Assembly: GCA_016748015.1 (NCBI GenBank)
Contig: JAAOMT010000397.1
Coordinates: 37,871-64,558, forward strand
Direction: 5' to 3'
Source of the DNA: Geosiphon pyriformis
Lineage: Eukaryota > Glomeromycota > Glomeromycetes > Archaeosporales > Geosiphonaceae
DNA length: 26,688 bases
Shown: positions 5,368 to 25,281 of the stretch, piece after piece
Position numbering within the stretch: the first letter of the stretch is position 1
Layout of the letters: each line of letters begins with the position of its first letter
Made by a program: the position numbers and the translations under genes
Notes under the pieces: generated by a model
The model's input: only the letters and a program-made list of their open reading frames with translations
The model's database searches: none
Told to the model about the DNA's origin: nothing

Positions 5368-5643
5368 GCAGTAGCATTAGAAGCAGAAAAGAGAGAATCA
5401 ACACTAAGAATTCTTAGCTTAGTTATCACAATCCTCAAAAAAATAATTATTTACTATATCAAATTTATTCTTCACTATCAACATTTCATGTTGATAGTAA
5501 CTGATACTTAACCATACTAAAACAATAGCTCTTGATCATGGCTATTAACAGGATACTAATTTGCAAATTGCCTTGGCTTATTTCTTAGTTTCTCTTTTAT
5601 TTTTTTTTGTTTTCTTTGTTGTCTACTAACTTGATTAAATGAT

Positions 5644-5818
5644 TTACTCTTGAAGGACTTATGGAGTAATAAAACTTACTTAAAACAATACTTACTCTTG
5701 GAGGACTTATGAAGGAATAAAACTTACTTAAAACAATACTTATTCTTAGAGAACTTACAGAGGAATAAACTTGCTTAAAACAATATTTACTCTTGGAGGA
5801 CTTACAGAGGAACTGCCA
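5644..5818 (+). repeat. 48-bp tandem repeat, about 3.6 copies, inside the LTR
   Basis: Units begin TTACTCTTGGAGGACTTA at 5644, 5692, 5740 and 5787, with periods of 48, 48 and 47 bp. Each ends in ACTTACTTAAAACAATA, except that the fourth stops after AGAGGAA. Variation is mostly transitions. Tandem arrays in LTR U3/R regions often affect promoter strength, but there is no direct sign of function here. Confidence 0.85.
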
Positions 5819-7686: not shown

Positions 7687-8256
7687 TCCTCTTGAATTGT
7701 TCCAAGTAAGAATCCTAGCTAGAGAGTAACCACCAAAAACATTAACTAAACCCAAACTTAAACATTTCCTAAGACTCGCCCCCTTGACTAAATTGTCTTC
7801 ATTGAAGTCCCCATCCAAAACAACAAAAGAACTCCTATTGACAATATCAGCAATGAATGAATTAATAACAGAAGCCTGAGCAAAATGGTTACCACCAGAC
7901 ACACAAGCATAAAGCCCAATAACAGACACAGAAAGCTTGTTTTTGAACAAAAGGCAAATTGAAAGAACCCTGCCCTTCACCTCCTCGACTTTGAAAACAT
8001 GACGAGCCAGAGAATCATTCACAAAAATAGCCACACCAGTCCCACGAAACCCAACATCCAGACCAGATGTAAAAACCCGGACACCCTCAAATCTTTTCAT
8101 AATCCATGGTTGTAAACTGGAACACAACTTGGTTTCCATAACAATCGAGATCGAACTACTAGATTCCTTATGCCAGCGATAAATGTCCTCCTGCTTTGCA
8201 AGATTGTTCATTCCCCTAATATTACACATGGCAATTTTCCAAATAAAACTGGTCAT
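7687..8256 (-). pseudogene. LINE ORF2 N-terminus: APE-type endonuclease, truncated
   Basis: An apurinic-endonuclease-like domain that nicks target DNA to prime reverse transcription. I place the start at ATG 8254-8256 (MTSFIWKIAMCNIRGMNN): it overlaps the ORF1 stop as ATGA exactly as in the full LINE. The ATG at 8295 adds 13 residues inside ORF1 with no match there. Visible motifs: CNIRGMN (metal-binding Asn), METKL (Glu), GLYACVSGG (Tyr region), DGDFNEDN (Asp and Asn) and TWNNSRG. The residues present are intact, unlike in the full LINE, but the last third with the SDH motif is missing. After SRG the frame runs into gypsy gag sequence and stops at 7663, so the last seven codons are chimeric. 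Confidence 0.8.
8253..8256 (-). promoter_or_regulatory. ATGA ORF1-ORF2 overlap (LINE fragment 1)
   Basis: On the minus strand the ORF2 start codon (8256-8254) shares bases with the ORF1 stop TGA (8255-8253). The full LINE has the same arrangement at 23488-23491. The overlap suits translation of ORF2 by ribosomes that terminate on ORF1 and reinitiate, known for several non-LTR elements; that function is inferred here. Confidence 0.65.
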
Positions 8257-10115
8257 TGTGATAAAGAGATAACTGAAGAACCCAAGCCAGCACATAACTG
8301 ATCCAACTTAACCAAAATTGAACCAATGGAGATGTTGAGGGCAACCAGCTTTGATTCCAGACCACCAACTTTGGAAGTCAGGACTTTGGAACTACTTGGA
8401 CTCAATAGTGAACTGGTAACACCTGGAGAGAAAGAAGTAGGCTGGACAAAAGGATCATCAACCGCCATGTCAAAATCCAAGTCGGAATTTGCAACCACAA
8501 GAGAAACAGAGGTTGGGAACTGAAAAACTACCACAGAAGGAGCCAATTGAGAGGAAGGCACCAAAGGTGCTGAACTAATATTGTCAAGATGAGAAAAAAT
8601 GTTCGAAATTTGTTCAGACATAAGCTCTACAGAGCATTCTAAAAGCGCTTAGTGAGCACTTAAAGGAGAATTGACCACAGGAAGAAGGGGGAGTACTCCA
8701 CCTGAACTCAAATCACCGGAAGGCGGGGAACTGGAACCAAAACCAGCACGAAAACCATGAGAGACTGAAGCAACTGAGACCACTTGAGCCCAAGATTTGC
8801 CACCAAAGGCAACAGGATAAGAGATCGGCACATTTTTCTTCACATACAATTTGGCCAGCTAGAAACGAGTATCAGGGTTGGTAGGCCTTATAAAAAACTT
8901 TGAAGATTTGAAAGCTGATGCAACCTCAGCATCACATTCCAAGGCAGAATGACCAAACTTTCTACACTGTTCACAGTGAACCAAATCCAGCCTAGCCCAT
9001 GAAAGTTTCATACTACCAAGGATTGGTTCTGTGCAAAAAGCTGACTCCAAAATCTCATTAGAATCAAAACACACAACAGCACAGCAGACCCTATTACCAG
9101 TCTCCAATAACCAATTTATAACACAAGTTTTTCCACCAGCCCCTTCAAGAAGATCCCCAAGATCATGAGCAGTAGTTCCCATTGGCAAAGTAAACAAAAG
9201 TGCCTTGAACTGGTTCCTAGACACCCAAGTTTCATGGTTGCTCACCACCATAGTCACACAAACTGAGTCTTTACCAATCAGGAAGGACCACCTAGCAGTC
9301 AAAAACACAGCCTGTTCCAATTCGGCGAATTCCACCACAGTTTTTTGCCATAAACTAATCAACTGGATTTTGATTGACTTAATTTCTCCAAACTTGGATA
9401 CTGCGGCGACGATCATTTCTTTTGGCGTGTCCATGGGAATTTCCTTGATCACTAAAGCCCAATCTGAACATATTCTTTGTCTCTTAAGATCACTGTTTAC
9501 AATGATGTTATTTTCCCTGGCTAATGACACGGCTTTTTTCATGCTTGCTTCAGAGATGAAGATAGATCTAATGATCCCTTCAAATTTTGAGGGGGTAGTG
9601 GCCTCTCCAAAACCATTGATTTTTGAAAATAATTTTCTTATGGCATGAGTTTTGGCTGTCGCCGATTTCCCTTCCACAGCCGAAAGATTGACGTCCAAAG
9701 CAAAAGATTTTTTTACAGCTACTTCCACCTGAGTTTTAATGATTTTGGAATCAATCCACACCTTATCCAAAGAAAAAGTCTTACGGGGGAGAAGAAAAAC
9801 CTCTTCTTTCTCTTCTATGTCGAAATTAATAGAGCTGAGAGAGGAGCCAACAATCGCACCATTATTGAAATGCTTGGCTTGGGGTGTATTCATCTTGGAA
9901 TCGAATACTCCTTCACCTTTGGAAGCCTCCCCATCAGTATCTATGCTATTAAACTGCCTGACCACTTGACCAAATCTACTACCTTTGAGAACCACACCAT
10001 TACTTGATAACTTAGCACTACCAGGAGGTTTTTTGACCTTATGACTTGAACCACTACTAACTAAACCAGAAGTTGGAACTCTGGACGATCTTTTTTTAGC
10101 ACCAGTACTACTCAT
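8253..10115 (-). pseudogene. LINE ORF1: tandem RRM-like and CCHC-knuckle RNA-binding protein, two nonsense codons
   Basis: The frame runs 621 codons from ATG 10115 to TGA 8253-8255, broken by TAG 8859-8861 and TAA 8649-8651, with no frameshift. ORF1 proteins bind LINE RNA and form the ribonucleoprotein with ORF2. Order: a basic Ser/Lys-rich N-terminus; a conserved block KSFALDVNLSAV..IRKLFSKINGFG..TPSKF; RRM-like fold 1 (WALVIKEIP and KTVVEFAE as RNP2/RNP1-like strands, about residues 215-290); RRM-like fold 2 (KALLFTLPMG, CCAVVCFDS); zinc knuckle CEQCRKFGHSALEC (CX2CX4HX4C) near residue 392; then GGKSWAQV and a Ser/Pro-rich tail with heptad-like C-terminal helices ending SVISLSQ. The full LINE's ORF1 matches across both stops, so they are nonsense mutations, not the protein end. 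The ORFs on the opposite strand (8326-8523, 9205-9648, 9645-10007) are shadows. Confidence 0.8.
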
Positions 10116-10245
10116 AGAAGCAGCCAGGTCAACAACAAAAGGATTTGTTTCTTGTAAAGTGATGGAAAACAGTATGAAATAGCAGAAAAAATTTCTTTCG
10201 AAATACGCTTTTTGAGGATTTTTAGGAGGTAAAAGAGAAAGAAGT

Positions 10246-11040
10246 TTTTATAATTGTAAATTGAAAAAATTTATAAATTTTGAATTAAATTTTTTTAACT
10301 GTATTTTATTTTTTTATTTATGCAAAAATTATATTTAAATTCTTTTAAAAAATAACTAATTGTTAATATTAAATTTTTTTGAAAATATTTATATAATAAT
10401 CTTATAAATTTTAAGTAATTTATTTTTATAAATTTTAATTTTGTTTTTTTGTTAAATAATTACTAATTATGTTTTATTTTTTATAAAATATATTTTACAA
10501 AAAACACCAAATATTACAAATAGATAAATAAATAATTAATTTATAAGTTAGTACTATTAATTAATAAAATTAAAAATTTTATTAAATTTAAAATTTTGGT
10601 AATTAAGTTTTTTGTATAATAAACAAAGATTTAAGTAATAGTAATTAACAATATTTGGTATTGAATTTTTTTGGCATAATAATTGGTTTATTCTAATATT
10701 TTATATTTTTTTAATAAGTAATTTAATTATTAATAAGTAATTTTATATTTATTTTTATATTTTTTATCAAACAATTTTTAATCTTGTAATTTTGAAATTT
10801 TTTTAATTAATTAAATAATTAAATAATAATACAAAATAAATAAATAAAAAGTTAATATTTTGTTAATAATTATAATTAAAAGTTATTGTTTTAATATTAT
10901 TAGATTTTTTAAATAAGCATTATTAATATTGATTGTTTTAATAAGTTTAATATTAAAAATAAATAATTATTAATAAAATAGATTATAATTTATATATATA
11001 TACAATTTTAATAAATAATTTAATTTAATAATTGTAATTT
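10246..11040. other. AT-rich filler, nothing recognised
   Basis: About 800 bp of nearly pure A/T with long T and A runs and a TATATATATA run near 10994. No reading frame with protein character and no long repeat that I can see by eye. It separates the 5' end of LINE fragment 1 from the truncated half-LINE. Confidence 0.6.
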
Positions 11041-11042
11041 TA

Positions 11043-12980
11043 TTGGCTGGTTTTTCACCAGTCAAAGTTCCCTCAAAGAGACACACTTGGGTTAGTCCCA
11101 GTGTTGCCTTTACCCCGACTAAGAGCCCAAAAGTTTTTAATAATAGACCAGTAAATAAGCTGGTCTTCCCCTTTATAGATTTAACACCTGATGTTTCTGG
11201 CACCACCTCCTCAAAAAAAATGATCAAAAAAACCAAAATTTCAAAAAAGTGGAAGCAGTCGCTTGCCTCTGCTATTGTTACACTGAACCTCTTTGTGGTT
11301 CCCAATGAGATCTTAGATAAAATCTCCATAGCATCATCCGGCATATTATCCAAGATGGGCCAAAATCAACTACTGGCTGTGTTGCCAAATGTGGTGTCTT
11401 CTGGCAGATCATTGCCAGTTTTAAAAGCAAAACAATTTTCTTTTGTTGGGTCATCTGTTCTTGGGAACTGGACTGATCAAATAGAAACTGATTCATTTTC
11501 TTCTCTAGTTTCTGGTGCTACTTTTGGTGGTGCTTGGAAAACTATTACTAGTCGTCAAAAGTTTGCTGGGTGGGTGGCCTTTACTCTGGTGCCTGGTGTT
11601 ACTTTTAAGATCAAATTGGCTCATGTTAAGACTGTTTTTCAGTCTGTGCATGGTTTCTTGGATGCTAAATCTGTTTGAAAAGATAATGTGAAGCTTTTCT
11701 GTATGGAGTTTGCTTCTCAATAGTCTTTGAAAGCTGTGTTTCTGGTTGAGCTTACAGGCTCTGTTTGTTTGACCACTCTCAAAATTGCCAAGTCTTTGGT
11801 GGTTTCTGAATCTGGTTCCTCTCCTGCTGCTGTTGCACTGTGTAATGTACCTTTGGGTGTGTCTACTGCTGACATCAAGTTGGCTTTCAGTGTTTTTGGT
11901 AGTATTACTCGTGTTGTGCTGAAGCCTGCTGGTATTTGGCAGTATGTGGTGATTTATTTTGAAAAGTTGGACTCTGCTGTGTCTGCTTTGGAGCATTGGT
12001 CAGTCTTGATGGGCAAGAATAGTGTTAGAATTCTTCCTCTGGTAAATCAAAATAAGACTATTTTGTTTTGTGATAAGTTTAAGGCCAAATTGGTCAATCT
12101 TCCTCCTGGCTGTACTGCTTTTGAAATCAGTGATATGATTTCTCAGATTGGTGGTCGAACATGTTTCATCCCTTGTTCTCCTGATTCTGGTTGTCATTTC
12201 CAGTTTGCTTTGATTATATTTGAATTTCAAGGTGATTTGGATTCTGCTGTAGTCAAGACTGGTACTCTAAGGAAATACCGTATTTGGTGGAAAACTTCTG
12301 GCTGCCGGTGCTGCTTTAGGTGTCAAGAAATGGGCTATCTGGCTATGGATTGCAAGATTTCTCCACCTCCTACTCCCAAGATTCCCAAGGTTTTCAAGTC
12401 TTGTTTTGTGAGTTCTGCTTCATATGCCAAGACTGCTGTTCCTTCTGGTCTTTCTGAGTTTCCTCCTTTAGTGGCTTTTTTGGCTGCTTCTGCTGCTGAT
12501 CCTGCTATTAGTTCCAGGTTGGACTCTTTGGAAAAGCAGATTTTGGATTTGGCTGCTCTGGTTAAGTCTATTGTTAAGCCTGTTAGTTCTTTGGTTGCTT
12601 TGGTGTCTCGTCTTCTTAATGATAATGCTGTTAAGGCTGTTCAGGTCAAGAAAGATATCATTTCCATGAAGAGTGCTGCTAACAATTTTTCTAACCTTAT
12701 AGTTAGAGTTTCCAAAGACATTGCTTGTTTTAGATTTGAGGTTGACTTTGGTGATATGGATTATGATGGTATGCTGGCTGCTAAGTCTTCTTTTTTAAGT
12801 GAAGACACTATTGAGTGTATTATTGCTTTGTGGCAAATGTCTGGTGCTGAAACCAGGAGCAATATTAAGTCTACTAGATTGTTTTTTAGTGAGTTTATTT
12901 TTGACTCTAAGAATTTGAATGGTATTATTGAGAGAATTTGTGAGTTGGAGTTGTTCTCACCTACTTTTGATTCAGCATAG
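11043..12980 (+). pseudogene. Half-LINE ORF1-type protein, copy 1, two nonsense codons
   Basis: One frame runs from 11043 to TAG 12978-12980, about 645 codons, interrupted only by TGA 11676-11678 and TAG 11721-11723. Copies 2 and 3 read Thr or Ser at the first stop and Ser or Val at the second. Order: an N-terminal region beginning inside the protein (no native ATG left); block GWVAFTLVPGVTFKIKL; a KAVFLVELTGSV..LKIAKSLVV stretch; RRM-like fold 1 (VALCNVPLG, YVVIYFEKLDSA, then HWSVLMGKNSV); RRM-like fold 2 (KAKLVNLPPGCTAFEI, FALIIFEF); knuckle CFRCQEMGYLAMDC; then a SYAKTAV motif and heptad-like helices (LDSLEKQILDLAALVKSI). The knuckle reads CCYC instead of CCHC, and copy 3 keeps His, so it is probably broken. 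The WSxLxGK motif after fold 1 is shared with both LINE ORF1s. The minus-strand ORFs here are shadows. Confidence 0.75.
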
Positions 12981-13095
12981 TGAGTTCTTGATTGGGCCGA
13001 ATGTCTGATCATGTGTAGAAAACGCATGATTTACGCTTATAATATAATCTCTTCTGTGGTATTATAGTTTTAGGTAGTATTTGGGTCTCGCTTGT
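12981..13095 (+). other. Half-LINE copy 1 3' UTR, shared with the full LINE
   Basis: Two blocks match the 3' UTR of the full LINE: TCTGATCATGTGTAGAAAACGCATGA (13004-13029) and AGTTTTAGGTAGTATTTGGGTCTCGCTTGTTA (13065-13096). The LINE reads GCTGGTCACATGTGGAAAG-GCATGA and AGTTCTAGGTAGTGTTTGGACCTCGCTCGTTA. Differences are mostly transitions. In LINEs the 3' UTR is what the reverse transcriptase recognises. Confidence 0.7.
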
Positions 13096-13126
13096 TAAAA
13101 TAAAATAAAATAAAATAAAATAAAAT
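13096..13126 (+). repeat. (TAAAA)6 tail of half-LINE copy 1
   Basis: Six units of TAAAA directly follow the conserved 3' UTR end. Short tandem A-rich tails are the usual 3' terminus of I/Tad-like non-LTR elements. The full LINE ends in (TAA)n instead, so tail units differ between the two. Confidence 0.8.
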
Positions 13127-13409
13127 TTATTTTAAATACTAAATTTATTAACTTTTAAATTAAATAAATTAATAATTTAATGTTTTTTGGTTTTTAAAAT
13201 TACTATTATCATATAAATTTTTATAATACAAAAATTTAGAATTTTTAATAATTTTTATATATTTTAAATAATTATTAAAATTTTTAATATTTTTAAAATT
13301 TTTAAAATCTTTTTTGGTTTTTTAAAATTTTAATATTATATTTGCTAACTTATTTATTATATATATTAAATTTTATTATTTTTTTATTATTTTTTAAGTA
13401 ATATTATTT
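13127..13409. other. AT-rich filler between half-LINE copies 1 and 2
   Basis: About 280 bp of A/T with no reading frame or repeat I can support. Copy 1 and copy 2 are in the same orientation and separated only by this spacer. Confidence 0.5.
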
Positions 13410-15675
13410 ATTATAAAATTAAAAAACTCTTTATGTTCTTAATTTTATGACCACAATTAAAGCAAAGAGTAAAAAGACTGCAATTTTTTTTTTTAAAGTA
13501 ACTAATAAAGTTTTAATATAAAAAAGTCTCTTTGTTATTAAATAGCTAAATATAATGTCTTAACTACATTTTCTTTAGATATTAATAATGAAAAGCTGTC
13601 TTTAATAATTGCTAAAACATTTTTTTCATCTTTGACTGGTTTTTTATTAATTAAAATTTCTTCAAAAAGACACACTTGAATTAGTTTTAGTATTGCTTTT
13701 ATCTTTTTCAAAAGCCCAAAAGTTTTTAATAACAGACTAGTTAACAAGCTAATCTTTCTTATTATTGTTTTTATATCTGGTGCTATTAGTACTATTTCTT
13801 CAAACAAAATGATCAAAAAGACCAATGTCTTAAAAAAATGGGAGCAATTGTTTGTCTCTGCTATTGTTATACTGAATCTCTTTATAATTCTAACTAAAAT
13901 CTTAAGTAAAATTTCCACTGTATTATTCAGCATATTATCTAAGATAGACCAAGATTAATCATTGACTGTGTTGCCAAATGTGGTGTCTTTTAATAAATTT
14001 TTGGCAGTTTTAAAAGTAAAGTAATCATTTCTTATTGGGTCATCTGTTTTTGAGAACTGGACTGATCAAATGGAAACTAAATCATCTTTTCTGATTTTTG
14101 ATGCTGCTATTAGTAATATTTGTAAAACTATTACTAGTTGTCAAAGGTTTAATAGGTAGATGGTCTTTACTTTAGTATTTGATAATATTTTCAAGATCAA
14201 ATTGGCTTATGTTAAAGCTGTTTTTTGGTTTGTACATGGTTTTTGGATGTGAAATCAGTAACAAAAGACAATTTGAAGCTTTTTTGTATGGAATTTGCTT
14301 CTCAAAGTTCTTTGAATGCTGTATTTTTGATTGAGCTTACAAGTTTTATTTGTCTTATTACTTTTAATATTGCCAAGTCTTTGATAATTTCTGAGTTTGG
14401 TTTTTTTTTTGCTGTTGTTGCACTGCATAATATGTTCTTAAATATGTCTGTTGTCAATATTAAATTAGCTTTTAGTGTTTTTAGTAAAAGTCTATTGGTA
14501 TTTAACAATATGTGGTTACTTATTTTAATGAATTAAAAACTGTTGCATTTATTCTCAATTATTAGTTAATATTAGAAAACAAAGACAGTATTTGGATTTT
14601 TTCTCTTGTAAATCAAAAAAAATTATTGTGTTTCATGATAAGTTTAGAACTAAGTTGGTCAATTTTTTTTTTGGCTGTACTGCTTTTAAGATTAATAATA
14701 TGATTTTTCAAGTTGGTAGTCAAACTTGTTTTATTTCTCATTTATCTAATTCTGGTTGTTATTTCCAGTTTGCTCTGGTTATATTTGGCTCTTAAGTTAA
14801 TTTGAATTCTGTAGTTGTCAAGACTGATACATTAAAAAAATGCTCTATTTGGTGAGAAACCTCTAGTTGTCAATGCTGCTTTAAATGCCAAAAGATGAGC
14901 CATTTGGCTGCAAACTATACAGTTTTTTTATCTTTTCTTTTTATGGCTTCTAAAATGTTCAAATTATGTTTTATGAGTAATGTTTTTTATGTTAAGGTTT
15001 TTGTTTATTTAAATTCTTTTGAATTTTTTTTTGACAGCTTCTGCTTTTTTTTCTGTGATTGTTGTTAATCTTCTGTTTTTTTTTGGCTAGTATTTCTGGA
15101 ATCTGATTTGGTTAAGTTGTCAACTTTGATTAAATCAATTAATAAACTTATTGGTGTATTAATTACTGTATTTGAATATTTTATTAAAAACAATCTTACT
15201 TTTAGCAGTGTTTTTAGTTTAAAGATTAATAAGCTTATGGTTTATTTCGGTTTTTTTAACAAGATTGTTAGTAAGTTAGAAAAAAAAATAGTTTTTTTGA
15301 AGAAAAAATACTACATAAATAATATTGATATGTCTGGTAATTTGGAGTGTTCAATTGGTATAGATAATAATATGTTTTTTAACTTGATGTTTTTTTGAAC
15401 ATATAAACCTATTAATATTAAAACTGATTCTTTAAAAACAGCCAAATGACTGATTAAATTGGTTTTTTATAGTATTATTTTGTTTGAAATTATTTAGAAG
15501 ATATTATTTTTGGATAAGTTTTCTTTTGTTATATCAATATAACATATTCTGAACTAACTTAAATAACTGGTTATATATAGAAAGTATATGAATTATATTT
15601 AGTACTAAAATACTTAATTTGTTCCTAATTTCTAAATAGTAGTTGGATTTTGTTCATTGAATCTAATAAAAAAAA
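13410..15675 (+). mobile_element. Half-LINE copy 2, full length but heavily C:G-to-T:A mutated
   Basis: It begins with a short 5' UTR (ATTAAAAAACTCTTTATG..CTTAATTTTATGA) that matches the 5' end of copy 3, so both have a defined 5' terminus. The 3' end keeps CTGAACTAACTTAAATAACTGG (from 15551) and AATAGTAGTTGGATTTTGTTCATTGAA (15635-15661), then a degraded A-rich tail. Compared by eye with copy 1, about four fifths of differences over a 117-nt sample are C-to-T or G-to-A. Confidence 0.7.
13447..15497 (+). pseudogene. Half-LINE ORF1-type protein, copy 2, decayed
   Basis: The ATG at 13447 opens M-T-T-I-K-A-K-S-K-K, matching M-I-R-A-K-S-K-K of copy 3. Reading fails within about 30 codons and is then rebuilt piecemeal: LKLFCMEFASQSSL and VFLIELTS at 14270-14345; FNIAKSLIISEFG; RTKLVNFFFGCTAF and QFALVIFGS at 14640-14790; a knuckle remnant CFKCQKMSHLAANY at about 14878-14920, with the last Cys replaced; and C-terminal helices FFNKIVSKLEKKI at 15250. 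It ends at TAG 15495-15497, which copy 3 shares. Nonsense codons are numerous. The ORFs at 14225-14536, 14592-14795 and 15108-15398 are fragments of this one frame. Confidence 0.7.
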
Positions 15676-16204
15676 AATTTATCAAATCTAAATTAAAATA
15701 TTTTTTAAAACTAATATTTTTTTAAATTTATTTTTATTAAAATTGTCATCTAAAATAACAAAAAAAATTATTTATAGTTTTAGTTATAAATTAATTTTAT
15801 TTATCTAAGCCAATTATATATTTAAAAAAATATTAATATTTAATCTTAAACCAATAATAAAATATTTATATTTAAAAAACAGTTTAAATAATAATAATTA
15901 TTAATTTATTTTTAAAATCTTGTATATATATCTAACTAAATTATTGTTTACAAAAATTATAATACCAAATTTCAAATAATTAAAATTAAAAATATAATTT
16001 TAATTTTATTAAATTTATTTATAATTTAAAATTTAATTTAATCATAATAAATATAATAATTAAATTTTAATTATTTTATATTATTTATTAATATTAATTT
16101 ACTTAACAATATTTTTTATACTTTTAATATTACATATAAATATTTTTTAAATTAAATTAAATATTAAAAAAAAACTATTTATAACTTATTTTTAAGAATA
16201 TTTT
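15676..16204. other. AT-rich spacer between inverted half-LINE copies
   Basis: About 530 bp of A/T with no coding signal. It separates copy 2 (plus) from copy 3 (minus), which lie tail to tail. The last 11 bases, AAGAATATTTT at 16194-16204, recur at 18519-18529. Confidence 0.55.
16194..16204. repeat. Target-site duplication, left copy (half-LINE 3)
   Basis: AAGAATATTTT here and at 18519-18529 are identical, and the bases beyond them differ. The match includes a G, which makes chance less likely in AT-rich DNA. Confidence 0.6.
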
Positions 16205-18518
16205 TTATTTTTATTTTATTTTTTATTAAAGTTTAACAAATAAGGCCCAACTACTATCTAATACAATAAAACTACATAAAGTTCTAAATTAAATATGGCT
16301 CACATGCTTTCTACATATAACCAGTTACTCAAGTCAGTTCAGGCTATACTATGTTGAAGCTTTTGAAGAAAACTTACCCAAAGCTAACATCTTCTAAACA
16401 ATAGAAAACAAAGTAACACTACAAGGAACCAATCTAACCAGCCACTCAGCTGTTTTCAAGTCATTAGTTTTGACATCAATAGATTCATGTTCCCAAAGAG
16501 ACATCAGATTAGAAAACACCTTATCATTCAAGCCAACCAAATGCTCTAAATTACCAGACATATCTATATTCTCCATGCAGCACTCTTTCTTTAAAGAAAT
16601 CATCTTTCTTCCCAACTTACCAACAACTTTATTAAAGAAACCCATATGCATCATAATCTCATTAATTTTAATGCCAAGCTTGCTGCTCGAGACCAAATCA
16701 CCATTAACAAATTGTTCAAACAATTTGACCAAAAAACCAACTGGTTTGACAATAAACTCAACCAAAGCAGAAAGCTTAACCAAATCAGATTCCAAAGAAG
16801 ATAATCAGAACAGCACCAGAGAATCGCCAACAACAACTGGAGAAAAGACAAGAGGAGATAAAGGCGGAAATCCAGAGGAGCCCAAGAGAACAGAAGCTTT
16901 GGCATAAGACTTGGGACCAACAAAATAAGATGTAAACACCTTGGAAATCTTAGGAAGAAGAGGTAAAGAAACCTTACAATCTGCAGCCAAATGGTCTAAC
17001 TTTTGACACTTGAAACAATGCTGATAACCAGAAGTTTTCTACCAAATGCAGCATTTTCTCAATGTACCAGTTTTGGCAATAGCAGAATCCAAATTAATCT
17101 GAAACCCAAATATAACCAGAACAAACTGAGAACAATAACCAAAATCAGAGAACTGAAGAATAAAACATGTCCGACCACCAACCTGAAAGATCATATTACT
17201 AATCTCAAAGACAGTACAGCCAGAAGAAAGATTGACCAATTTGGTCTTAAATCTATTACAAAACAAAATAGTCTCATTTTAATTCACCAGAGGGAGGATC
17301 CTAATACTATTTTTGCCCACCAAAACTGACCAATAATTTAAAGCAGACACAACAGAGTTTAAACTTTTAAAATAAATTACCACATACTGCCAAATGCCAG
17401 TAGGCTTTAGCACAACATAAGTAACACTACCAAACACACTAAAAGCTGTCTTAATGTTAGCAGTAGACACACCCAAGGGCATATCATGCAGTGCAACAGC
17501 AGCAAAAAAGAAACCAGACTCAGAAATTACCAAAAATTTGGCAATTTTGAGAGTGGCCAAATGTACAGAGCTTGTAAGCTCAACCAAAAATGCAGTTTTT
17601 AAAGACACTTGAGAAGCAAACTCCACACAAAACAGCTTTACATTGTCTTTTGATACTGACTTTGCACCCAAAAAACCATGTACTGACTGAAAAACAGTCT
17701 TAACATAAGCCAATTTGATCTTGAAAGTAGCACCAAACATTAGAATAGAGGCCACCCATCCAGCAAACCTTTGACAACTAGTAATAGTTTCTCAAGCACC
17801 ATCAGAAGTAGTATTAGAAACTAAAGAAGGAGATAATTCAGTTTCCATTTGATTAGCCCAGTTCTCAAGAACAGGTGACCCAACAGAAGAAAATTGTTTT
17901 GCTTCTAAAACTGGCAATAATCTACCAGAAAACACCACATTTGGCAACACAGCCAGTGGTTGATCTTGGCCCATCTTGGATGATGTGTTGGATGATGCTA
18001 TAGAGATCTTATCTAAGATTTCATCAGGAACCACAAAGGGATTTGGTGCAACAATAGTAAAGACAAGTGACTGCTTCCACTTTTCTGAACTTTTGGTCTT
18101 TTTGACCATTTTTTTTGAAGAGAAGGTATTAGCAGCATCCAGATGTTGAAGCTATAGAAAGGAACACCAGCTTGTTAACTGGTCTATTATTAAACACTTT
18201 TGGGCTCTTAGTAGAGATGGAGGCAACACTGGGACTGATCCAAGTGTGTCTCTTTAAGAGAACTTTAACTGGTAAAAAACCAGCCAAAGATGAGGAAGTT
18301 GTTTCAATGGCTATCAAAGACAGTTTTTCACAATTACTGGGTAAAGAGAAGGCTTCTAAAACGTTTTGCCTAGTTGCTTCTACAACAAAGAGAGCTTTTC
18401 TGGTTGAAATTTTATTAGATATCTCAGGACAGATATTAAGTGCAGCTTTTTTACTCTTTGCTCTGATCATGATTATAAAATTAAGGAGACAAAGAGTTTT
18501 TTTAATATTTTTTTATTG
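16205..18518 (-). mobile_element. Half-LINE copy 3, full length with 11-bp candidate target-site duplication
   Basis: Minus-strand copy, about 2.31 kb. The 5' UTR (18518-18471; AAAAAAACTCTTTGTCTCC) aligns with that of copy 2. The 3' UTR keeps both blocks shared with the full LINE (in + coordinates about 16298-16345 and 16231-16262), followed by an ATTTT-rich tail at 16205-16230. AAGAATATTTT lies directly outside each end. No endonuclease, RT or RNase H is present. Confidence 0.8.
16394..18470 (-). pseudogene. Half-LINE ORF1-type protein, copy 3: four nonsense codons, one frameshift
   Basis: The most complete view of the protein, about 690 codons from ATG 18470 to TAG 16394-16396. The N-terminus (M-I-R-A-K-S-K-K-A-A-L-N-I-C) is missing from copy 1. 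A 1-nt length difference from copy 1 between about 18170 and 18110 shifts frame, giving the stop at 18129. After it: KTKSSEKWKQSL, GWVASILMFGATFKIKL, VFLVELTSSVHLATLKIAKF, RRM-like fold 1 (VALHDMPLGVS, YVVIYFKSLNS, YWSVLVGKNSI), RRM-like fold 2 (KTKLVNLSSGCTVFEI, FVLVIFGFQ), an intact knuckle CFKCQKLDHLAADC (CX2CX4HX4C), KSYAKASV, and C-terminal helices. Compared directly with copy 1, TGA 17792 and TAG 17039 replace TGG, and TAA 17279 replaces CAA. A further TGA lies at 16805. The plus-strand ORFs here are shadows. Confidence 0.75.
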
Positions 18519-18529
18519 AAGAATATTTT
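18519..18529. repeat. Target-site duplication, right copy (half-LINE 3)
   Basis: Identical to 16194-16204. It lies just outside the 5' UTR of the minus-strand copy. Confidence 0.6.
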
Positions 18530-18689
18530 ATTAAGTTTTAATCATACAATATTAAAATATAAAAGTTTAATCAATTTAACTTTAAGATATTTTAACTTAA
18601 ATATTAAAAAAACAGCAAATAAAAATATAATATCTAATTTAAAAAATATTAATAAGATTTAATTAGACAAAAACCTAATATTATATTTT

Positions 18690-18709
18690 TATTATTATTA
18701 TTATTATTT
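18690..18709 (-). repeat. (TAA)n tail of the full LINE
   Basis: On the + strand ATT repeats run directly into TTAACGAGCGAGG, the end of the conserved 3' UTR. TAA-type tails are known for I-like elements. Confidence 0.75.
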
Positions 18710-18823
18710 AACGAGCGAGGTCCAAACACTACCTAGAACTATACATCAAAGAAATGATCTAAACTAGGTGTGAATCATGCACTTTCCACATGTGACCAGC
18801 CATTCAAGCCAGTCAGAACAACA
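18710..18823 (-). other. LINE 3' UTR, shared with the half-LINEs
   Basis: In sense orientation it holds CTGACTGGCTTGAATGGCTGG with CACATGTGGAAAG-GCATGA (in + coordinates about 18770-18815) and TAGTTCTAGGTAGTG with TTTGGACCTCGCTCGTTAA (about 18708-18743). The same blocks in the same order close all three half-LINE copies. It is a candidate recognition site for the LINE reverse transcriptase. Confidence 0.7.
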
Positions 18824-21800
18824 CTATGCAATTATATTAGCTAAAACTGGGTTCCCAATACCTAAAAAAAAAGAGCAAGATTTGTAAAAGCCAAAACGGA
18901 TGCCAAAAGCTTCAGTAATACCAAGCAGTTTAACCACATCATTCAAGAATCTTGACGTCAAACCAGAAATTGAGATGGAAACCAAGCCATCCACCAAAAT
19001 TAAGTCATTCTTTTCTATGTATGCACAATGCTTGGCATGGACCAACCAAATGTCATTCCTGAAAGCAATACAAATAGAGTGTACAAAATCAGCAATATTA
19101 ATGCCAGCAACTTTGGAATCATGGAAGATAGAAACAGCTTCCTGAAGCCATCCTTTGAAAATGAAACTCTTGCAAAGAGCTGAGAATACCAGGAAATCTG
19201 AAGCACAGATCAACAGCATCTATAAAATGCTTGAAGAAGAGAGAGAGAGACCAGAAAGCATCTTCCAAGAAGACATACAGGATTCCAAAACCCAACGACG
19301 AGCTGCATCATTAATCATACAAGAAAACACATGATCAGACACCTCCATCTTACCACAATATAGACACAAAACGCTAGGGTAACATTTATCATAAATGCGC
19401 TTTTAAACAACAACAGAAAGCCGATGGTACAAAGCCTTCATAAAGTAAGTATGAATATCAGCAGTGCGTCTACTGGTGAAACCAGTTGCCATATGCAAAT
19501 CAGAGTGCCAAACTCCAGAAAAGGTAAGCCAATTGACATCCGAGTGCAAATCACCAGCTAGAAACCCAGAACCAAAACCGATCTCCCAGCGCGCCCGATA
19601 GACAGCACGAAAAACATTTCAAACAAAGTGCCTAGAATTACCAGAAACAATATCACCATCTGCCAACAAAAACCATTTAGCAACACAAGGAGAGAGAAAC
19701 TGATCAGAAAGAGCTGCAGCGTCAGCGATGCTATCGGTGCAATCATTTCCTAATACACCAGAGTGGCTTTTAATCTTGTGCCAGCTAACCCTCAAATTTT
19801 TTCTGTGAATAATATTCCTAATATGCTGGTGCTCAACCCAACACTGATTGTGAAAATCAGGACACACCAAGTTAACCTCTGATTTGCAAGCATTCAAAGC
19901 AGCCTGGTTATCTAAAAACAGGCAAACAGAATGATCCACAGGTACACACTTCAGAGCCAATGCTATAGCCTGCAACTCTGCCAAAGTAGACAACATTAAA
20001 CCCTAAACACAGACACCTAAACCCAAGTCAATGTCCTCAAAAAAGGCAGCAGCTCCGGCCTTACAACCAGTCATGCCCAAATTTTTCACCGACCCATCTG
20101 TATACACAGACAAACTATTAGTGCCAACCCAAGAAAGACAATCATATACAGACACAAAATCATCAGAACCACAAATGTCCATAGGGCTAACACCACACAA
20201 AGCCAAAGAAGAGAGAGGTGTACCACTAAAAAATACAACAGAGTGCCCGAACTACTCAGAAACTGGGCCACAAGGATCCAGTTTTTTCCACCACTTAAAG
20301 GTGTACTAATCAAAGATATCCTCATGATGATCCTGAAGCTGATCCACAAAGACAATGCCATATCACCAAAGAGAAGGCATGTATTTGAAAAACAAGGATT
20401 TACCCAGAACAGTAGATATAGGCACCCTATCACGAAACCAAAAAGAGCTGGCCAAAGAGCCACCTAAAGACAAATTGCATTCAAAAAGAATGTGTACCAA
20501 ACTTAACAAGAAATTATTGGAAACACTGACATGGATATGAGCTGGTGAACTCAATGAATGAATGGGGTGCCAATACAGAATCTGCAAGTCATAAGACCTG
20601 TGATTAAACAATTGACCCAGGACCCCGCAGGAGTTCACAAAACTAATAAGTAAAGCAACCTTGCTTTTACACTGACATTGTGAAAATGACTTTAAACCGA
20701 AAAAGGAAGGATGATAAATCATGTTACTAGGAAAATTGAGAGAAAAACCAGATTTAAGTTTCAAACCCTTATGAATCAGAGCATTCCATTTGTCATACAC
20801 ACTAACAGGAACAAAACTGAATTGTGTCTTGTAGCTGACTATAGGATAAAGAACTGCCAACATCAGGTACAAGAACTGCTTATCTGAAACCACTTTCTTT
20901 AGAACCAAATTGCTGAAAAAACAAATGTCTAAATACACTTTAGCTAAACTAGGCTTAGAAAGACCATTAGTTAAGAGAAAGATACCAAGATACTGATGAG
21001 ATTTGCCTTTTTTGGCTATGGAAATGGGTGAACCACTGATGAAAAGAGACAGATTGCTGATCCTGCTATTAATAGAAATGACCACAGTTTTGTCATTATT
21101 GATTGAAATGTCATTAATCTAAAAAAATTCATTAGCAACATTGAGAATATGTTGAATAGCAGCCTGACTGCTGCCAACCCAAATCATGTCATCAACAAAG
21201 GCCCCAGCAGCAAAGAAAGTAGAAAACCCAGCCTAAGATTCAGCGTGACTACTTCTAGAGACAAAATGGAAATTAAGTCTATACCTGTATACACTCTTTT
21301 GATGCTTGACTTCACACAAAAGAGGATCATAAAATATGTGCCAAAGAAGAGGGGAAAAAACTTCTCCTTGGTCCAACCCATCATGTACACTATAACCATC
21401 AGTTAAACCGAAATCTGTCATAACCCAATTGGTCTGATTTCTATGAATATTACCACAAAAACAAATAAATTTGTCACACATTTTGATTCTGACCAAACAC
21501 TTCTTGAGATGCTCCCATCCAACAGAGTCATACACTTTTCGCATGTCCTACAATACCAGCTAGAGCTCTTGGTTCTTCTCCAAAGCATTTTTAACAATCA
21601 AACCAATAGCAAAAATAGGAGTTTGGGTAGTTGTACTCTTCAAAACTAAAAAATTATCTCCACGAAGAATGTTATGAGCACTGCACGCCAGTGATATCCT
21701 GTTGAAGAGGATCTTATGAGCTGTTTTAATCAAGACTATAGGTCAAATATTTGTGAGGACACTTTTCGACTTGTATGGTTTAGGGATCATCGAAATCCAA

Positions 21801-23491
21801 GCTTCCCTCCAAGGACCAGACACAGACTCATGAGACAGACAAGAATTCAGAAGCACCAAAAGCATATCCAGAACAGACCTATTACTGTGCATCCACAGCT
21901 CATTTGAAATACCTGAAAGACCAGCAGCCTTGTTAATAGGCAGATCAGAAACCATACCAAACAATTCCAAAAACTCAATTGGCTGCATTACATCAGAAAA
22001 AGCCTCATTAAAAACGTAATTCAATAGCTGATACTGACAGTATCACATATCAGAAACATCGGGAACCACCCTATGCTTCTTAGTCCATTCTTCCATGATT
22101 TCATCCACCCTTGATCTCACAGGACCAGGTTCCAAAATCAGCTCATCGTCCACAACCAAGTAATCCAAAACAATCTTATGGAAAGTTCGCTCCAGAATGC
22201 TCCGAATAATGTAACCCTTGTTCAGCTCGAAACTTTCCATTCTCTTATTGATTGCTGATTTAATTTGAGATTCCTCTATGTGCTTCAATTCCACCATTTT
22301 AAGTGAGCAATAAGTTTTTTTGATCTTAGAAAAAGCTGACCAAACAGTATTAAGAGGAAAGCTAGAGAGAAAAAGAAATCTGACCACAGAGGCATTATCA
22401 TTATCAAGAGAACTCCAGACATCCAACAGTGAAATGAATTTGTCACAACAAATCAACCGAAAAGCTTTAATCAGCTTCGATATCAAAAGTTCCAACTTAT
22501 AAAATTTGGATGAATTCCTAGTGAAGACACCATCATAGTCCTTAAATCATTTCTTCTTGAACACCTCATCAGCTGAAAAAATCATTATCTTGTGAACAAT
22601 GTCTCACATTGCATCCAAATCTGAGAATTACTGGGAGACAATAAAATCATCAAAGAACATGGCAGCATTAGCTGCCGTAGCACCCTTGAATTTGTTCCAT
22701 TTCACGTTATCAGCACCCTTAAAATTAAACTTCCAACAATCTCTATTCACCTGTTTGCGAAGAAAATTCAACTGCACATCCAATAAACCACCCAAACCCA
22801 AAGACACAAAAACAGCCTGATAGTCCATTTCAAAATACTCACCAACATCTGAGACACTGCAGTGTACTATTGCATTAACCAAATTTGAAGAAACAAATAT
22901 ATAGTCAATCATTTTTCTAGCACCCCTAGAGTTTGCCCAAGTAGGCAATTTCACAGCCAGGCTTTTGACCAAAGAATTTGCCAGACCCAAATCAAGGCAC
23001 TTCCTAAAACTTGCACACTTATGAGAACCATCTTCATTGAAATTACCACCAAGAATAATGAAAGAAGATTTATTGACAGTCTTCGCAATGAGAGAGTTGA
23101 TTTCACCAGCCTGAGATAACCAAACTGCCAGAGAAACACCAGCATAAAGCTCCAGAATCAACACAGAAAATTTACTCTTGAAAAGTAATTTAATGAACAG
23201 AAGCTGACCAGACACCTCAGAAATCTTGCACATATGATGAGCCAAAAAAACGTCCATAATAACAGCAACACCCACACCCAAGTGACCAGAGTCTAAACCA
23301 GAAGTGAACACTCGAACACCATCAAACTTATCTACAATCCACGAACAAATCTTACTTCTTAATTTCATTTCAGTAATGATAGAAACCAAATTGTTTATTT
23401 CCTTATGCCACTTAATAATGTTTTTCTGCTTAGCAGGATTGTTCATGTCCCTAACATTGCATGTGGCAACTTTCCAGACCAAACTGCTCAT
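18824..23491 (-). pseudogene. LINE ORF2: APE endonuclease - reverse transcriptase - RNase H - Cys/His knuckle, 16 nonsense codons
   Basis: One frame of 1,556 codons from ATG 23491 to TAG 18824, with no frameshift. ORF2 nicks target DNA, copies LINE RNA at the nick and removes RNA from the hybrid. Endonuclease (23490-22750): CNVRDMN, ITEMKL, ELYAGVS; GGNFNED stands where LINE 1 has GDFNED, and MDYQAV where TDHxAV is expected, so catalytic Asp and His are lost. RT (22040-20900): motif LTNI-stop-PI in place of NxRPI, motif A QDMRKVYDSVGW (Gln now TAG), motif B DQGEVFSPLL, motif C FVDDMIWVG. RNase H (20140-19700): YTDGS, ELQAIALAL, LDNQAAL, HSGVLGND, all acidic residues present. C-terminal knuckle CLYCGKMEVSDHVFSC at about 19369-19320. 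Stops: TAA 22628, 19403; TGA 22604, 22547, 22043, 21743, 20363, 19619; TAG 21560, 21548, 21233, 21119, 20306, 20252, 20003, 19220. Confidence 0.85.
23488..23491 (-). promoter_or_regulatory. ATGA ORF1-ORF2 overlap (full LINE)
   Basis: The ORF2 ATG (23491-23489) shares two bases with the ORF1 stop TGA (23490-23488), as at 8253-8256. The neighbouring protein sequences have diverged while the overlap is kept, which argues for a role in ORF2 translation. Confidence 0.7.
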
Positions 23492-25281
23492 TGAGTGAGA
23501 GGTAGAGACACCGAATGCACATCTATACTATCCACTTTGGCCGAAAGGCCCAAAACCGTTTCCATTAGACACTTTATGCTGTCTTCCAGCTTAGACACCG
23601 AAGACATATCGAAAGACACTGCTCTCACAACAGTCTCACCACCAGTGAACACACCCGAGCTCTCACTCATCACTACATCCACCCCTTGATCCTGTGATGA
23701 AGAGGTCACCAACGGCTGACATCCAGGGCTAGGCTGGGGAACCATTGGTCCAAATGCATCCAATCTCTTAGCCAGCTTACCAACTTGCTCCGCGAGGCTG
23801 GTGAGACTGCACTCAAGAGTGGCGAACCTATTGTTGACCTCCATTGTAACCAGTAGGGACAGCTTCATCTCCAAAAAAGAGCCATTATCCACCAAAACAT
23901 TCTGACTAGAAAGAGGGAGAGAAGAAGACCTGCAAGCAACTTTTGCCCAAGATGGATCACCAAAAAAGACCAGACAAGCAACTGAAGCCAAGCATTTGGC
24001 ATAGATGGCTGCCAGCCTGCTTTTATCTGTGTCCGAGAAAGCCCTACATGACAAATTACCAGAAGAAAATTTCCCACCAACAACACAATCCAATGACATA
24101 TGACCCAACTTCTCACACTTGGTGCATTTAGCAGAAATGAGGCAAGACCAGTAGAGATTGGCGTTTTTAAGTACTGATGTGGTTCCCACAGCAGCATTCA
24201 ATGATTCAGCAGAGTCGAAGCAAACAACAGCACACCTGGCCTGAGCATACATAACAGGATGATGATCAATGACACATGTTTTCTCATCCACAGATCTAAC
24301 AAAGTCCCAGATATTATGAGCATTAGTCCCCATTGGCAATGTGTAGAACAGTGCCCTATGTCAATTCCTTGCATCCCATGTCTTTTTGTCTGAATTAGCT
24401 CTAGCCATGCATACAGCATCTTTCCCAATCAGAATAGACCACTCAGCTGCAACCAAATCAGCCTGATCCGATTGCTCGAAATCTACCACTGCCTTCTGTC
24501 ACAGCCTGATTAATTGCATCTTGATCACCTTAATAACTCCAAACTCGGATAATGCAACGCGCACAGCTTCAGCTGACATTTCAATCAGAATTTTTTTTAT
24601 GACCACAGCCTGATCTAACCACCCAAATGATTTTTTGAGATTGGTGTTTACTAGGATCTTCGCACTCGCAGCCTTATCAGTAGCTTTCATTAGACTCGAT
24701 TCAGAAGTGAACGTCACTTTGATGATCTCTGAGAATTTTGAAGGAGTAGATGCCCTTCCAAAACCATTGATTCCAGAAAATAATTTCCTCACCACCACAA
24801 GCTTTTCCTGAGAAAATTTGCTGGCCACCTTATCTAAGCTAATATCCAATGCAAATGACTTCCTGACTGGAACATTAACTAAGTTTTTCATAGGAGGGGG
24901 GAGCTTAAAAGGAGCATCTGAGAGAACACTATCATCATCACTACTCTTTGAGAAATCAATCTTTCCCAACGACTTGCCCAATGCCTTCTTGGTTTTAACT
25001 TTTGAACCCGTGAGTGTTTGATCATGATCTCCACCAGCCAGAGCACCACTTTTACCATAATCAAAGCTGGTCTTCTCTACCAGACACTCTTCTTCCATAT
25101 TAACACTCTTAGATTCAGTAGTGTCCCCAGTCTCTGAACCCCATGAATAGCTCTCCTAAACTTTAGAAGCTACTTTTTTACTACTGGAACCATCTTCCAA
25201 AACACCTCCCCTCCTCTTCTTTTTCGACAAGACTGTTTCAAAACCACCACCAGAACTAGAACTCTTAGCAGCCTTCTTCAT
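23488..25281 (-). pseudogene. LINE ORF1 (full element): RRM-like and CCHC RNA-binding protein, three nonsense codons
   Basis: 598 codons from ATG 25281 to TGA 23488-23490 in one frame, broken by TAG 25156, TGA 24499 and TGA 24361. I chose ATG 25281 over 25098 because it opens a Lys/Ser-rich N-terminus like that of LINE 1 and lies just after the shared 5' UTR. Order: KKAAKSSSS and KKKRR (possible nuclear targeting); block KSFALDISLDKV..VRKLFSGINGFG..TPSKF; RRM-like fold 1 (AVVIKKILI, KAVVDFE, AEWSILIGKDAV); RRM-like fold 2 (ALFYTLPMG, CAVVCFDSAES); knuckle CTKCEKLGHMSLDC (CX2CX4HX4C); PSWAKVA; a heptad-like segment FATLECSLTSLAEQVGKLAKRL; end SVSLPLTQ. LINE 1 has Trp at the 24499 stop (LWQK), so TGG became TGA there. 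At 24361 LINE 1 reads Gln. ORF2 follows with an ATGA overlap. Confidence 0.85.

What the first reader, a model, noticed from the sequence alone, without database searches (positions are those of the whole stretch)
11041..18518. A family of ORF1-only 'half-LINEs' carrying the 3' UTR of a LINE
Three copies encode the same tandem-RRM-like and CCHC protein and then pass directly into a 3' UTR. None has endonuclease, RT or RNase H. Copies 2 and 3 share a 5' terminus and copy 3 has an 11-bp candidate TSD, so the short form is itself the mobile unit, not one deleted LINE. Two 3'-UTR blocks match the adjacent full LINE in order and spacing. Established parallel: mammalian HAL1, an ORF1-only L1 derivative. 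Inference: the LINE machinery mobilises these in trans while the element supplies its own RNA-binding protein. I know of no such description for Glomeromycotina, but I cannot search.
Basis: partly seen in the sequence, partly recalled or inferred. Interest (0 to 1): 0.85.

Follow-up and report, generated by a model that had tools for sequence, protein, structure and literature searches.

The report
Fungal ORF1-only retrotransposons riding on LINEs
A fungal genome holds hundreds of copies of a short jumping element that makes only an RNA-binding protein and carries the same folded RNA tail as a resident full-length LINE retrotransposon, so it very probably spreads by borrowing that LINE's copying enzyme.

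Summary
The three window copies belong to a large ORF1-only ("half-LINE") family. 366 genomic places carry the same 28-nt 5' terminus at up to 3 mismatches (reversed control 0). Of 11 independent type-A loci, chosen without regard to the 5' end, 10 start there. Flanking repeats are real across 29 copies (0 of 100,000 permutations); one copy sits inside a LINE ORF2 with a 9-bp duplication. No LINE ORF2 domain lies inside any of 34 loci. The element ends in a 118-nt 3' UTR shared with the LINEs. Its five-helix fold covaries (95.7% of cells paired; 89.7% shuffled, 30-37% slid). A model of it hits 5 of 5 held-out LINEs right at the ORF2 stop. Best reading: LINE ORF2 recognises this fold and mobilises half-LINE RNA in trans; that step is inferred. 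Unlike a simple HAL1, the ORF1 is no deleted version of these LINEs' ORF1 (26% identity; own N- and C-terminal parts). Subfamilies share a 5' module but differ in C-terminus and 3' UTR. ORF1-only elements (HAL1, HeT-A) and shared LINE 3' tails are known; this combination looks new. The taxon was not verified.

The parts
11043..13125 (+). Copy 1, type A half-LINE, 5'-truncated by about 209 nt; ORF1 in two pieces (11043-11678 and 11724-12980), 3' UTR 12980-13099, (AAAAT)n tail
12980..13099 (+). Structured 3' UTR of copy 1
   Evidence: R1 108.8 bits; copy 1 (as L001) was in the model's training set
13427..15675 (+). Copy 2, B-type half-LINE, full 5' end, heavily decayed (13 stops in the reference frame); 3' limit approximate
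15542..15661 (+). Structured 3' UTR of copy 2, held out of the model
   Evidence: R1 59.9 bits, E 4.8e-13
16205..18496 (-). Copy 3, type B half-LINE, full 5' end to A-rich tail; broken ORF1
16232..16349 (-). Structured 3' UTR of copy 3
   Evidence: R1 95.3 bits; in the training set
18519..18529 (.). TSD of copy 3, 5' side (AAGAATATTTT on + strand)
16194..16204 (.). TSD of copy 3, 3' side
18497..18518 (.). 22-nt A-rich stretch between the 5' TSD and the conserved 5' terminus of copy 3; such variable stretches recur in other copies
18690..25155 (-). Adjacent LINE: ORF1 pieces 25155-24499 and 24360-23488, EN 23527-22628, RT region including 21118-20363, RNase H 20002-19619, ORF2 C-terminus 19219-18824, then 3' UTR and (TAA)n tail; several frame breaks; outer limits approximate
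18707..18824 (-). Structured 3' UTR of the LINE, shared with the half-LINEs
   Evidence: R1 139.3 bits (in the training set); alignment A1

Best explanation
The copies belong to a non-autonomous non-LTR retrotransposon family that encodes one protein, a tandem-RRM plus CCHC ORF1, and ends in a structured 3' UTR shared with resident LINEs that have an APE-type endonuclease (weak domain match), RT and RNase H. Proposed cycle: the element is transcribed from its fixed 5' end. Its ORF1 protein is translated and coats its RNA. LINE ORF2 protein recognises the folded 3' UTR as it does its own, nicks A/T-rich DNA and copies the RNA by target-primed reverse transcription, leaving a TSD and an A-rich tail. 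Shown: fixed ends, TSDs, absence of ORF2 in the copies examined, shared covarying 3' fold, presence of ORF2-bearing LINEs with that fold. Inferred: recognition by ORF2, supply of ORF2 in trans, use of the element's own ORF1 protein.
For: 5' terminus: 366 places at up to 3 mismatches, reversed control 0; 10 of 11 independent type-A loci. Fixed unit: 37 of 43 places matching copy 3 cover at least positions 45-2282 of 2311. TSDs: 29 copies, mean score 14.1 matched against 11.3 mismatched, 0 of 100,000 permutations. L026 lies antisense inside a decayed LINE ORF2: the three residues FAC (9 bp, ACATGCAAA) occur at both flanks where the related LINE has LAC once. ORF2: hits with EN, RT, RNase H and C-terminal pieces lie only in flanks of the 34 loci. 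3' UTR: 69 sequences, 28 pairs, 95.7% of cells paired against 89.7% shuffled and 30-37% slid; 151 double-change cells against 58.8, 0/500. Held-out: in 5 of 5 LINEs chosen by RT the model match starts at the ORF2 stop codon. 9 of 10 fetched hits of a B' half-LINE 3' UTR follow LINE ORF2 (two of the ten were picked because they lie beside listed LINE C-termini). One intact 708-aa ORF1. Precedent for ORF2 binding a 3' stem-loop: PMC4176376 (abstract and passages).
Against: No transcript, protein or retrotransposition assay. The closest of the 41 aligned LINE 3' UTRs is only 66-73% identical to types A and B (78-81% for B'), so which LINE serves A and B is unknown. Most copies seen are broken. 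Pairwise dN/dS (0.65 in A, 0.44 in B) and A-B fixed differences are weak evidence for selection on the protein. Two covariation measures are weaker: pairs with double changes 17 against 15.4 (92/500) and further pair types 47 against 44.2 (19/500). TSD repeats taken as abutting the 5' end give almost no signal (6.2 against 5.5).
Confidence: 0.85

Rival explanations
1. HAL1-like in the strict sense: an undetected autonomous LINE has this very ORF1 type plus ORF2, and the half-LINEs arose from it by internal deletion. Trans-mobilisation then works as in the best explanation; only the origin differs, so this overlaps with it.
For: The ORF1 core (residues 237-586) is homologous to LINE ORF1 (hhalign 99.7%, E 1e-25, 26% identity), so a LINE ancestor at some depth is very likely. 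Searches score only the best 100-150 of thousands of candidates, so such a LINE could be missed.
Against: 40 of 40 scored type-A 3' UTR hits (230 candidates) follow half-LINE ORF1 and none follows LINE ORF2. 0 of 143 half-LINE places has a sampled LINE C-terminus within 7 kb downstream. The type-A C-terminal part finds no counterpart in the LINE ORF1 set compared.
Confidence: 0.25
2. The copies are dead fragments of LINEs or segmental duplicates, not mobile units.
For: All three window copies have stops, and the locus is duplicated at C403 at 94% identity.
Against: Fixed 5' and 3' ends, TSDs, hundreds of places on many contigs, unrelated flanks except for the C403 duplicate, one copy inside a LINE ORF2 with a 9-bp duplication.
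Confidence: 0.03
3. A multicopy host gene family derived from ORF1, as proposed for the EKA effectors of Blumeria, spread as ordinary retrocopies.
For: ORF1-derived gene families exist in fungi (PMC4641428, abstract and passages); one intact 708-aa frame.
Against: The copies carry the LINE-type structured 3' UTR to its end and fixed termini rather than arbitrary mRNA ends. Most copies seen are broken.
Confidence: 0.05
4. Mobilised in trans by poly(A)-tail recognition (relaxed type, as for L1), with the 3' UTR similarity merely inherited.
For: Tails are A-rich.
Against: The fold is kept with compensatory changes while the primary sequence diverges to about 58-66% between subfamilies, which inheritance alone would hardly give.
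Confidence: 0.08

Closest known systems
HAL1 (half-L1) of mammals
   Same: Non-autonomous, encodes only ORF1p, derived from a LINE, arose several times (PMC5753468 passages).
   Different: Here ORF1 is of RRM-RRM-CCHC type and 26% identical to the LINE ORF1s compared, with its own N- and C-terminal parts. The link to the LINE is a structured 3' UTR rather than a poly(A) tail (L1 as relaxed type: PMC4176376 passages). The original HAL1 paper was not held.
HeT-A of Drosophila, with TART/TAHRE
   Same: Gag-only non-LTR element lacking RT, with the RT probably supplied by TART or TAHRE; abundant (PMC5537684 passages).
   Different: HeT-A is telomeric and head-to-tail at chromosome ends; these copies lie inside many contigs and have TSDs.
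Stringent-type LINE/SINE pairs (UnaL2, ZfL2)
   Same: Shared folded 3' tail recognised by the LINE's ORF2 protein (PMC4176376 abstract and passages).
   Different: SINEs carry no ORF (recalled); these passengers encode an RNA-binding protein. No Rfam family reaches its cut-off in window 12900-18900; the one match overlapping the LINE 3' UTR is chance-level (E 3).
EKA/Kryze ORF1 copies of Blumeria graminis
   Same: Fungal multicopy family derived from LINE ORF1; apparently none of nine Avrk1-like consensus sequences had both ORFs (the sentence prints 'Any'; PMC4641428 passages).
   Different: Interpreted there as truncated or co-opted copies. The abstract and passages that I saw show no tests of shared 5' end, TSD or structured 3' UTR. 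One of 34 full-length fragments had RT-RNase H downstream.

Membership tests
Non-LTR retrotransposon (mobile unit) | Target-site duplications and 3' A-rich or simple-repeat tail | tested here: met
   29 copies, 0 of 100,000 permutations; L026 inside a LINE ORF2; tails
Non-LTR retrotransposon (mobile unit) | Reproducible 5' end in full-length copies | tested here: met
   366 places, control 0; 10 of 11 independent type-A loci
HAL1-like ORF1-only element | Encodes ORF1p, lacks ORF2 | tested here: met
   0 of 34 loci with LINE EN, RT, RNase H or ORF2 C-terminus inside the element; hits only in flanks
HAL1 (L1 family) | Derived from L1; L1-type ORF1p | tested here: not met
   RRM_1 and zf-CCHC; homologous to the ORF1 of a fungal LINE whose ORF2 has RNase H
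HAL1-like ORF1-only element | Derived from a contemporaneous LINE by loss of ORF2 | tested here: inconclusive
   ORF1 core 26% identical to the LINE ORF1s in hand; no closer ORF2-bearing relative seen, but searches are capped
Stringent-type LINE/passenger pair | 3' tail shared in sequence and secondary structure | tested here: met
   A1/R1:
Stringent-type LINE/passenger pair | ORF2 protein requires and binds the 3' structure | not testable with these tools
   needs binding or retrotransposition assays
HeT-A-like telomeric element | Telomeric head-to-tail arrays | tested here: inconclusive
   Copies lie inside many contigs, which speaks against it; some same-orientation neighbours with LINEs; telomeres were not mapped

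The most novel reading that the evidence does not exclude
An old, independently evolving 'gag-only' retrotransposon lineage has lived alongside the LINEs of this fungus. It keeps its own long ORF1 and lets the rest diverge, but preserves by compensatory change the 3' fold that the LINE enzyme reads. It renews itself by swapping C-terminal and 3' modules behind a common 5' module. Its abundant ORF1 might even be used by the LINEs in return.
Probability: 0.35. Interest if true: 0.75.

Novelty: new variant of a known kind. Interest (0 to 1): 0.62.

Why it matters
ORF1-only LINE passengers are documented in mammals (HAL1) and flies (HeT-A). Here a passenger keeps its own RNA-binding protein and also carries a structured 3' recognition element, so the two signals (which RNA the protein coats, which RNA the enzyme reads) can be separated and tested. 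The covarying 118-nt fold gives a concrete RNA to test for ORF2 binding. Before recent curation, about 30% of Rhizophagus irregularis genomes consisted of unclassified repeats (PMC11075540, passages). If this genome is of that kind, a family like this is a candidate for part of them; that link is an inference.

Tried and rejected
Rejected: 'one deleted LINE' (shared ends and TSDs in many copies). Rejected: copy 3's TSD as alignment accident (0 of 28 mismatched partners as good), though single repeats in this A/T-rich DNA are weak and the support is mainly collective. Requiring the TSD to abut the conserved 5' end gave almost no signal (6.2 against 5.5; likewise): the repeats sit a variable distance outside it. 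Rejected as evidence of strong protein selection: dN/dS, because A-B fixed differences are mostly nonsynonymous (76 against 9 for A-B1) and A-B divergence concentrates in the C-terminal module.

Led nowhere: AlphaFold of L004 ORF1 (mean pLDDT 38.1, pTM 0.21). The strand/helix order at 325-385 and 409-468 resembles RRMs and 550-629 is a long helix, but confidence is too low for a fold search, so none was run. PDB by sequence: one match at E 0.006 to 1whx (residues 320-375; that it is an RRM is recalled) and one at 0.47. Rfam: nothing above chance. Attempt to identify the assembly from its size in papers: nothing.

Rows dropped before counts: from A1, copy 2, L013 (duplicate of the window locus), L018, L019 (13-nt insertion), L025, L031 (deletion); all six were later scored with the model as held-out cases. 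From the TSD test: L025, copy 2, L013, L001, L009. From dN/dS: copy 2 and L013. Of 43 copy-3 places, 20 were fetched besides the window's own. Of 41 listed B' 3' UTR hits, 10 were fetched, mostly from the lower half of the list; many others without a listed neighbour were not checked.
Full report
What is there. The window is G000:C335:37871-64558 of an unnamed 124.7-Mb, 406-contig genome. Three related copies lie at about 11043-13125 (+), 13427-15675 (+) and 18496-16205 (-), next to a LINE on the minus strand (25155 to about 18690). Copy 1 is type A; copies 2 and 3 are type B. Pfam finds RRM_1 in copy 1, best over the upstream RRM. In the intact genomic copy L004 (ORF 708 aa) it finds the downstream RRM and zf-CCHC. 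The LINE side has an ORF1 with RRM_1 (572 aa in L076) and, in the window LINE, a weak CCHC match (E 0.034, below cut-off). It also has Exo_endo_phos (E 0.001, below Pfam's cut-off), RVT_1 and RNase_H.

Unit and ends. A DNA search with copy 3 returned 43 places (1804 candidates, 40 scored). 37 of 43 cover at least positions 45-2282 of the 2311-nt query. Apart from the window's own, they are 76-94% identical, save one at 66%; one place is a 141-nt tail only. Twenty were fetched. 19 of 20 begin at CTCTTTGTCTCCTTAATTTTATGACC..., L014 being shorter, and flanks diverge immediately upstream (L013, the C403 duplicate, shares copy 3's flank). That ranking favours full-length copies. The less biased figure is from type A, fetched by the C-terminal ORF1 half: 10 of 11 independent loci begin at this terminus (L001 and L009 are the duplicated window locus, truncated). 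Genome-wide the 28-nt terminus occurs 366 times at up to 3 mismatches, against 0 for the reversed pattern.

TSDs. In A/T-rich DNA single repeats are weak, so matched 5'/3' flanks were compared with mismatched pairs. For 19 type-B copies the mean score was 14.4 against 11.3, 0 of 20,000 permutations. For 29 copies of both types it was 14.1 against 11.3, 0 of 100,000. Not every copy has a convincing repeat: for 7 of 29 (L005, L012, L015, L021, L024, L027, L032) at least half of the mismatched partners score as high. In 27 of 29 the best repeat lies 1-32 nt outside the conserved 5' terminus. Two copies sit antisense inside LINE ORF2 sequence (L022, L026). For L026 the flanks read as LINE RT residues up to 145 on one side and from 143 on the other; the three shared residues (FAC; LAC in L077) are the 9-bp repeat ACATGCAAA.

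No ORF2. tblastn with LINE EN, RT, RNase H and C-terminal pieces gave no hit inside the element in any of 34 loci (12 type A and 22 type B entries, including the window copies and the duplicate). The hits (L004, L006, L019, L022, L026, L030) lie in flanks. The 708-aa ORF1 fills the 2.3-kb unit. Of 40 scored type-A 3' UTR places (230 candidates), 32 abut one of the 100 listed ORF1 hits. The other 8, fetched, all have half-LINE ORF1 upstream, one of them (L080) only a 35-aa remnant, and none has LINE ORF2. None of 143 half-LINE places has one of 150 sampled LINE C-termini within 7 kb downstream on its strand. These are samples of thousands of candidates (4651, 4038). Cases that could be mistaken for ORF1 plus ORF2: L002 has LINE ORF1 sequence downstream of its own 3' UTR in the same orientation, and a half-LINE on C370 has a LINE C-terminus 6.4 kb downstream beyond its own 3' UTR.

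Shared 3' UTR. Forty LINE 3' ends were fetched by their ORF2 C-terminus. With the window's, these 41 average 86% identity among themselves over 118 nt, 65% to type A, 63% to B and 75% to B'. RNAalifold on 69 sequences (41 LINE, 12 A, 16 B/B') gave 27 pairs, 17 with double changes. For the 28-pair structure, 95.7% of cells pair, against 89.7% shuffled and 30-37% slid; 151 double-change cells against 58.8; covariation 0.425 against 0.303 (0/500 for these three). Pairs with double changes (17 against 15.4, 92/500) and pair types (47 against 44.2, 19/500) separate less. Model R1 finds exactly four places in the window, including held-out copy 2. It finds five of five LINEs chosen by RT (123.9-133.8 bits), each match starting two bases after the first base of the stop codon that ends the open frame. 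It finds held-out half-LINEs L013, L018, L019, L025 and L031 (53-107 bits), and 18 of 18 further loci, which had been picked by 3' UTR similarity. A half-LINE B' 3' UTR used as DNA query (1155 candidates, 41 listed) reaches LINE ends. Ten hits not in the half-LINE lists were fetched, two of them because they lie beside listed LINE C-termini. Nine follow LINE ORF2, which is 41-81% identical to L073's, and one follows half-LINE ORF1.

Not a deleted copy of this LINE. Half-LINE ORF1 residues 237-586 align with LINE ORF1 at 26% identity (hhalign 99.7%, E 1e-25). The first 236 residues and the last 120 or so do not, and the type-A C-terminal part finds nothing in the LINE ORF1 set; the type-B part has a weak match up to the coiled-coil region (70%, E 4e-5). 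By blastn of three half-LINEs against five LINE loci, the only same-element nucleotide similarity lies around the 3' UTR (64-80%). The other hits are further half-LINE sequence downstream of the LINEs in L073 and L074.

Mosaic subfamilies. In 150-column windows types A and B are 83-89% identical over columns 150-1500 (the first window includes flank) and 79% over 1500-1650. They fall to 38-57% over the next 600, and are 58-64% in the 3' UTR; B and B' differ less. The A and B C-termini are still homologous proteins (35%, E 1e-27). Some ORF1 hits only 65-69% identical to copy 1 have a B'-like 3' UTR next to them (C247, C272, C386, C401). This looks like exchange behind a common 5' module; how it happens was not tested.

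State of copies. Among the fetched half-LINE loci only L004 has the whole frame open; one search lists further long open frames that were not checked. 144 stops in 32 aligned copies fall mainly at TGG, CAA, CAG and CGA codons, as C-to-T/G-to-A decay would give. Nearest neighbours are up to 94% (A) and 91% (B) identical among those fetched, so no very young copy was seen in this sample.

Mechanism. The anatomy fits mobilisation by LINE ORF2 through its own 3' recognition structure, as tested for zebrafish LINEs (PMC4176376, abstract and passages), with a passenger that brings its own RNA-binding protein. HAL1 (PMC5753468, passages) and HeT-A (PMC5537684, passages) are the nearest in coding content; LINE/SINE pairs are nearest in the 3' signal. 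In print: the rows listed by searches (15 of 267; 20 of 128; 15 of 43; 12 of 22; 15 of 73; 8 of 79; 9 of 9) show no title on ORF1-only elements of arbuscular mycorrhizal fungi. In two Rhizophagus TE papers a term search of the main text found no 'ORF1' and no 'non-autonomous' (PMC11075540; PMC8647823, also no 'nonautonomous'). Subscription literature and supplements were not searched.

Noticed in passing
Window 18496 and 18824; L073 7142-7653; C398:556239-559379; C55:10406-13585; C402; C117: Half-LINEs often lie just 3' of a LINE in the same orientation: 6 (5 independent) within 2 kb of 150 sampled LINE C-termini, 1 opposite, 0 on the 5' side, about 0.34 expected in all. Two of five LINEs fetched for other reasons also show it (L073, L074). 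Suggests insertion into or near A-rich tails.
   Followed up: partly
L003, L004, L006, L011, L012, L014, L076 flanks: Further R1 tails lie within a few hundred bp of element ends, both tail-to-tail and in the same orientation, again pointing to 3' ends as insertion targets; some may belong to short or SINE-like elements.
   Followed up: partly
Window 18497-18518 and other copies: Variable A/T-rich stretches, 1-32 nt in 27 of 29 copies, sit between the 5' TSD and the conserved 5' terminus; their origin (untemplated addition, upstream transcription start, other) is unexplained.
   Followed up: partly
C403:92590-99371 versus window 11043-18496: The window locus has a segmental duplicate: copy 1-like, copy 3-like (94%) and LINE remnants in the same arrangement.
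   Followed up: partly
L022, L026: Two half-LINEs are inserted antisense inside decayed LINE ORF2 sequence, so half-LINEs also hit LINE bodies.
   Followed up: partly
Window 7663-10247 (-): A second LINE fragment with ORF1 (RRM_1 E 2.8e-7) and an endonuclease-like frame (read by eye); no RT was seen in this stretch.
   Followed up: no
Window 5624-5812: Four tandem copies of a 46-48-bp unit.
   Followed up: no
Copy 2, window 13427-15675: By eye, strong C-to-T and G-to-A decay relative to the other copies, as methylation-driven or RIP-like mutation would give; not quantified for this copy.
   Followed up: no
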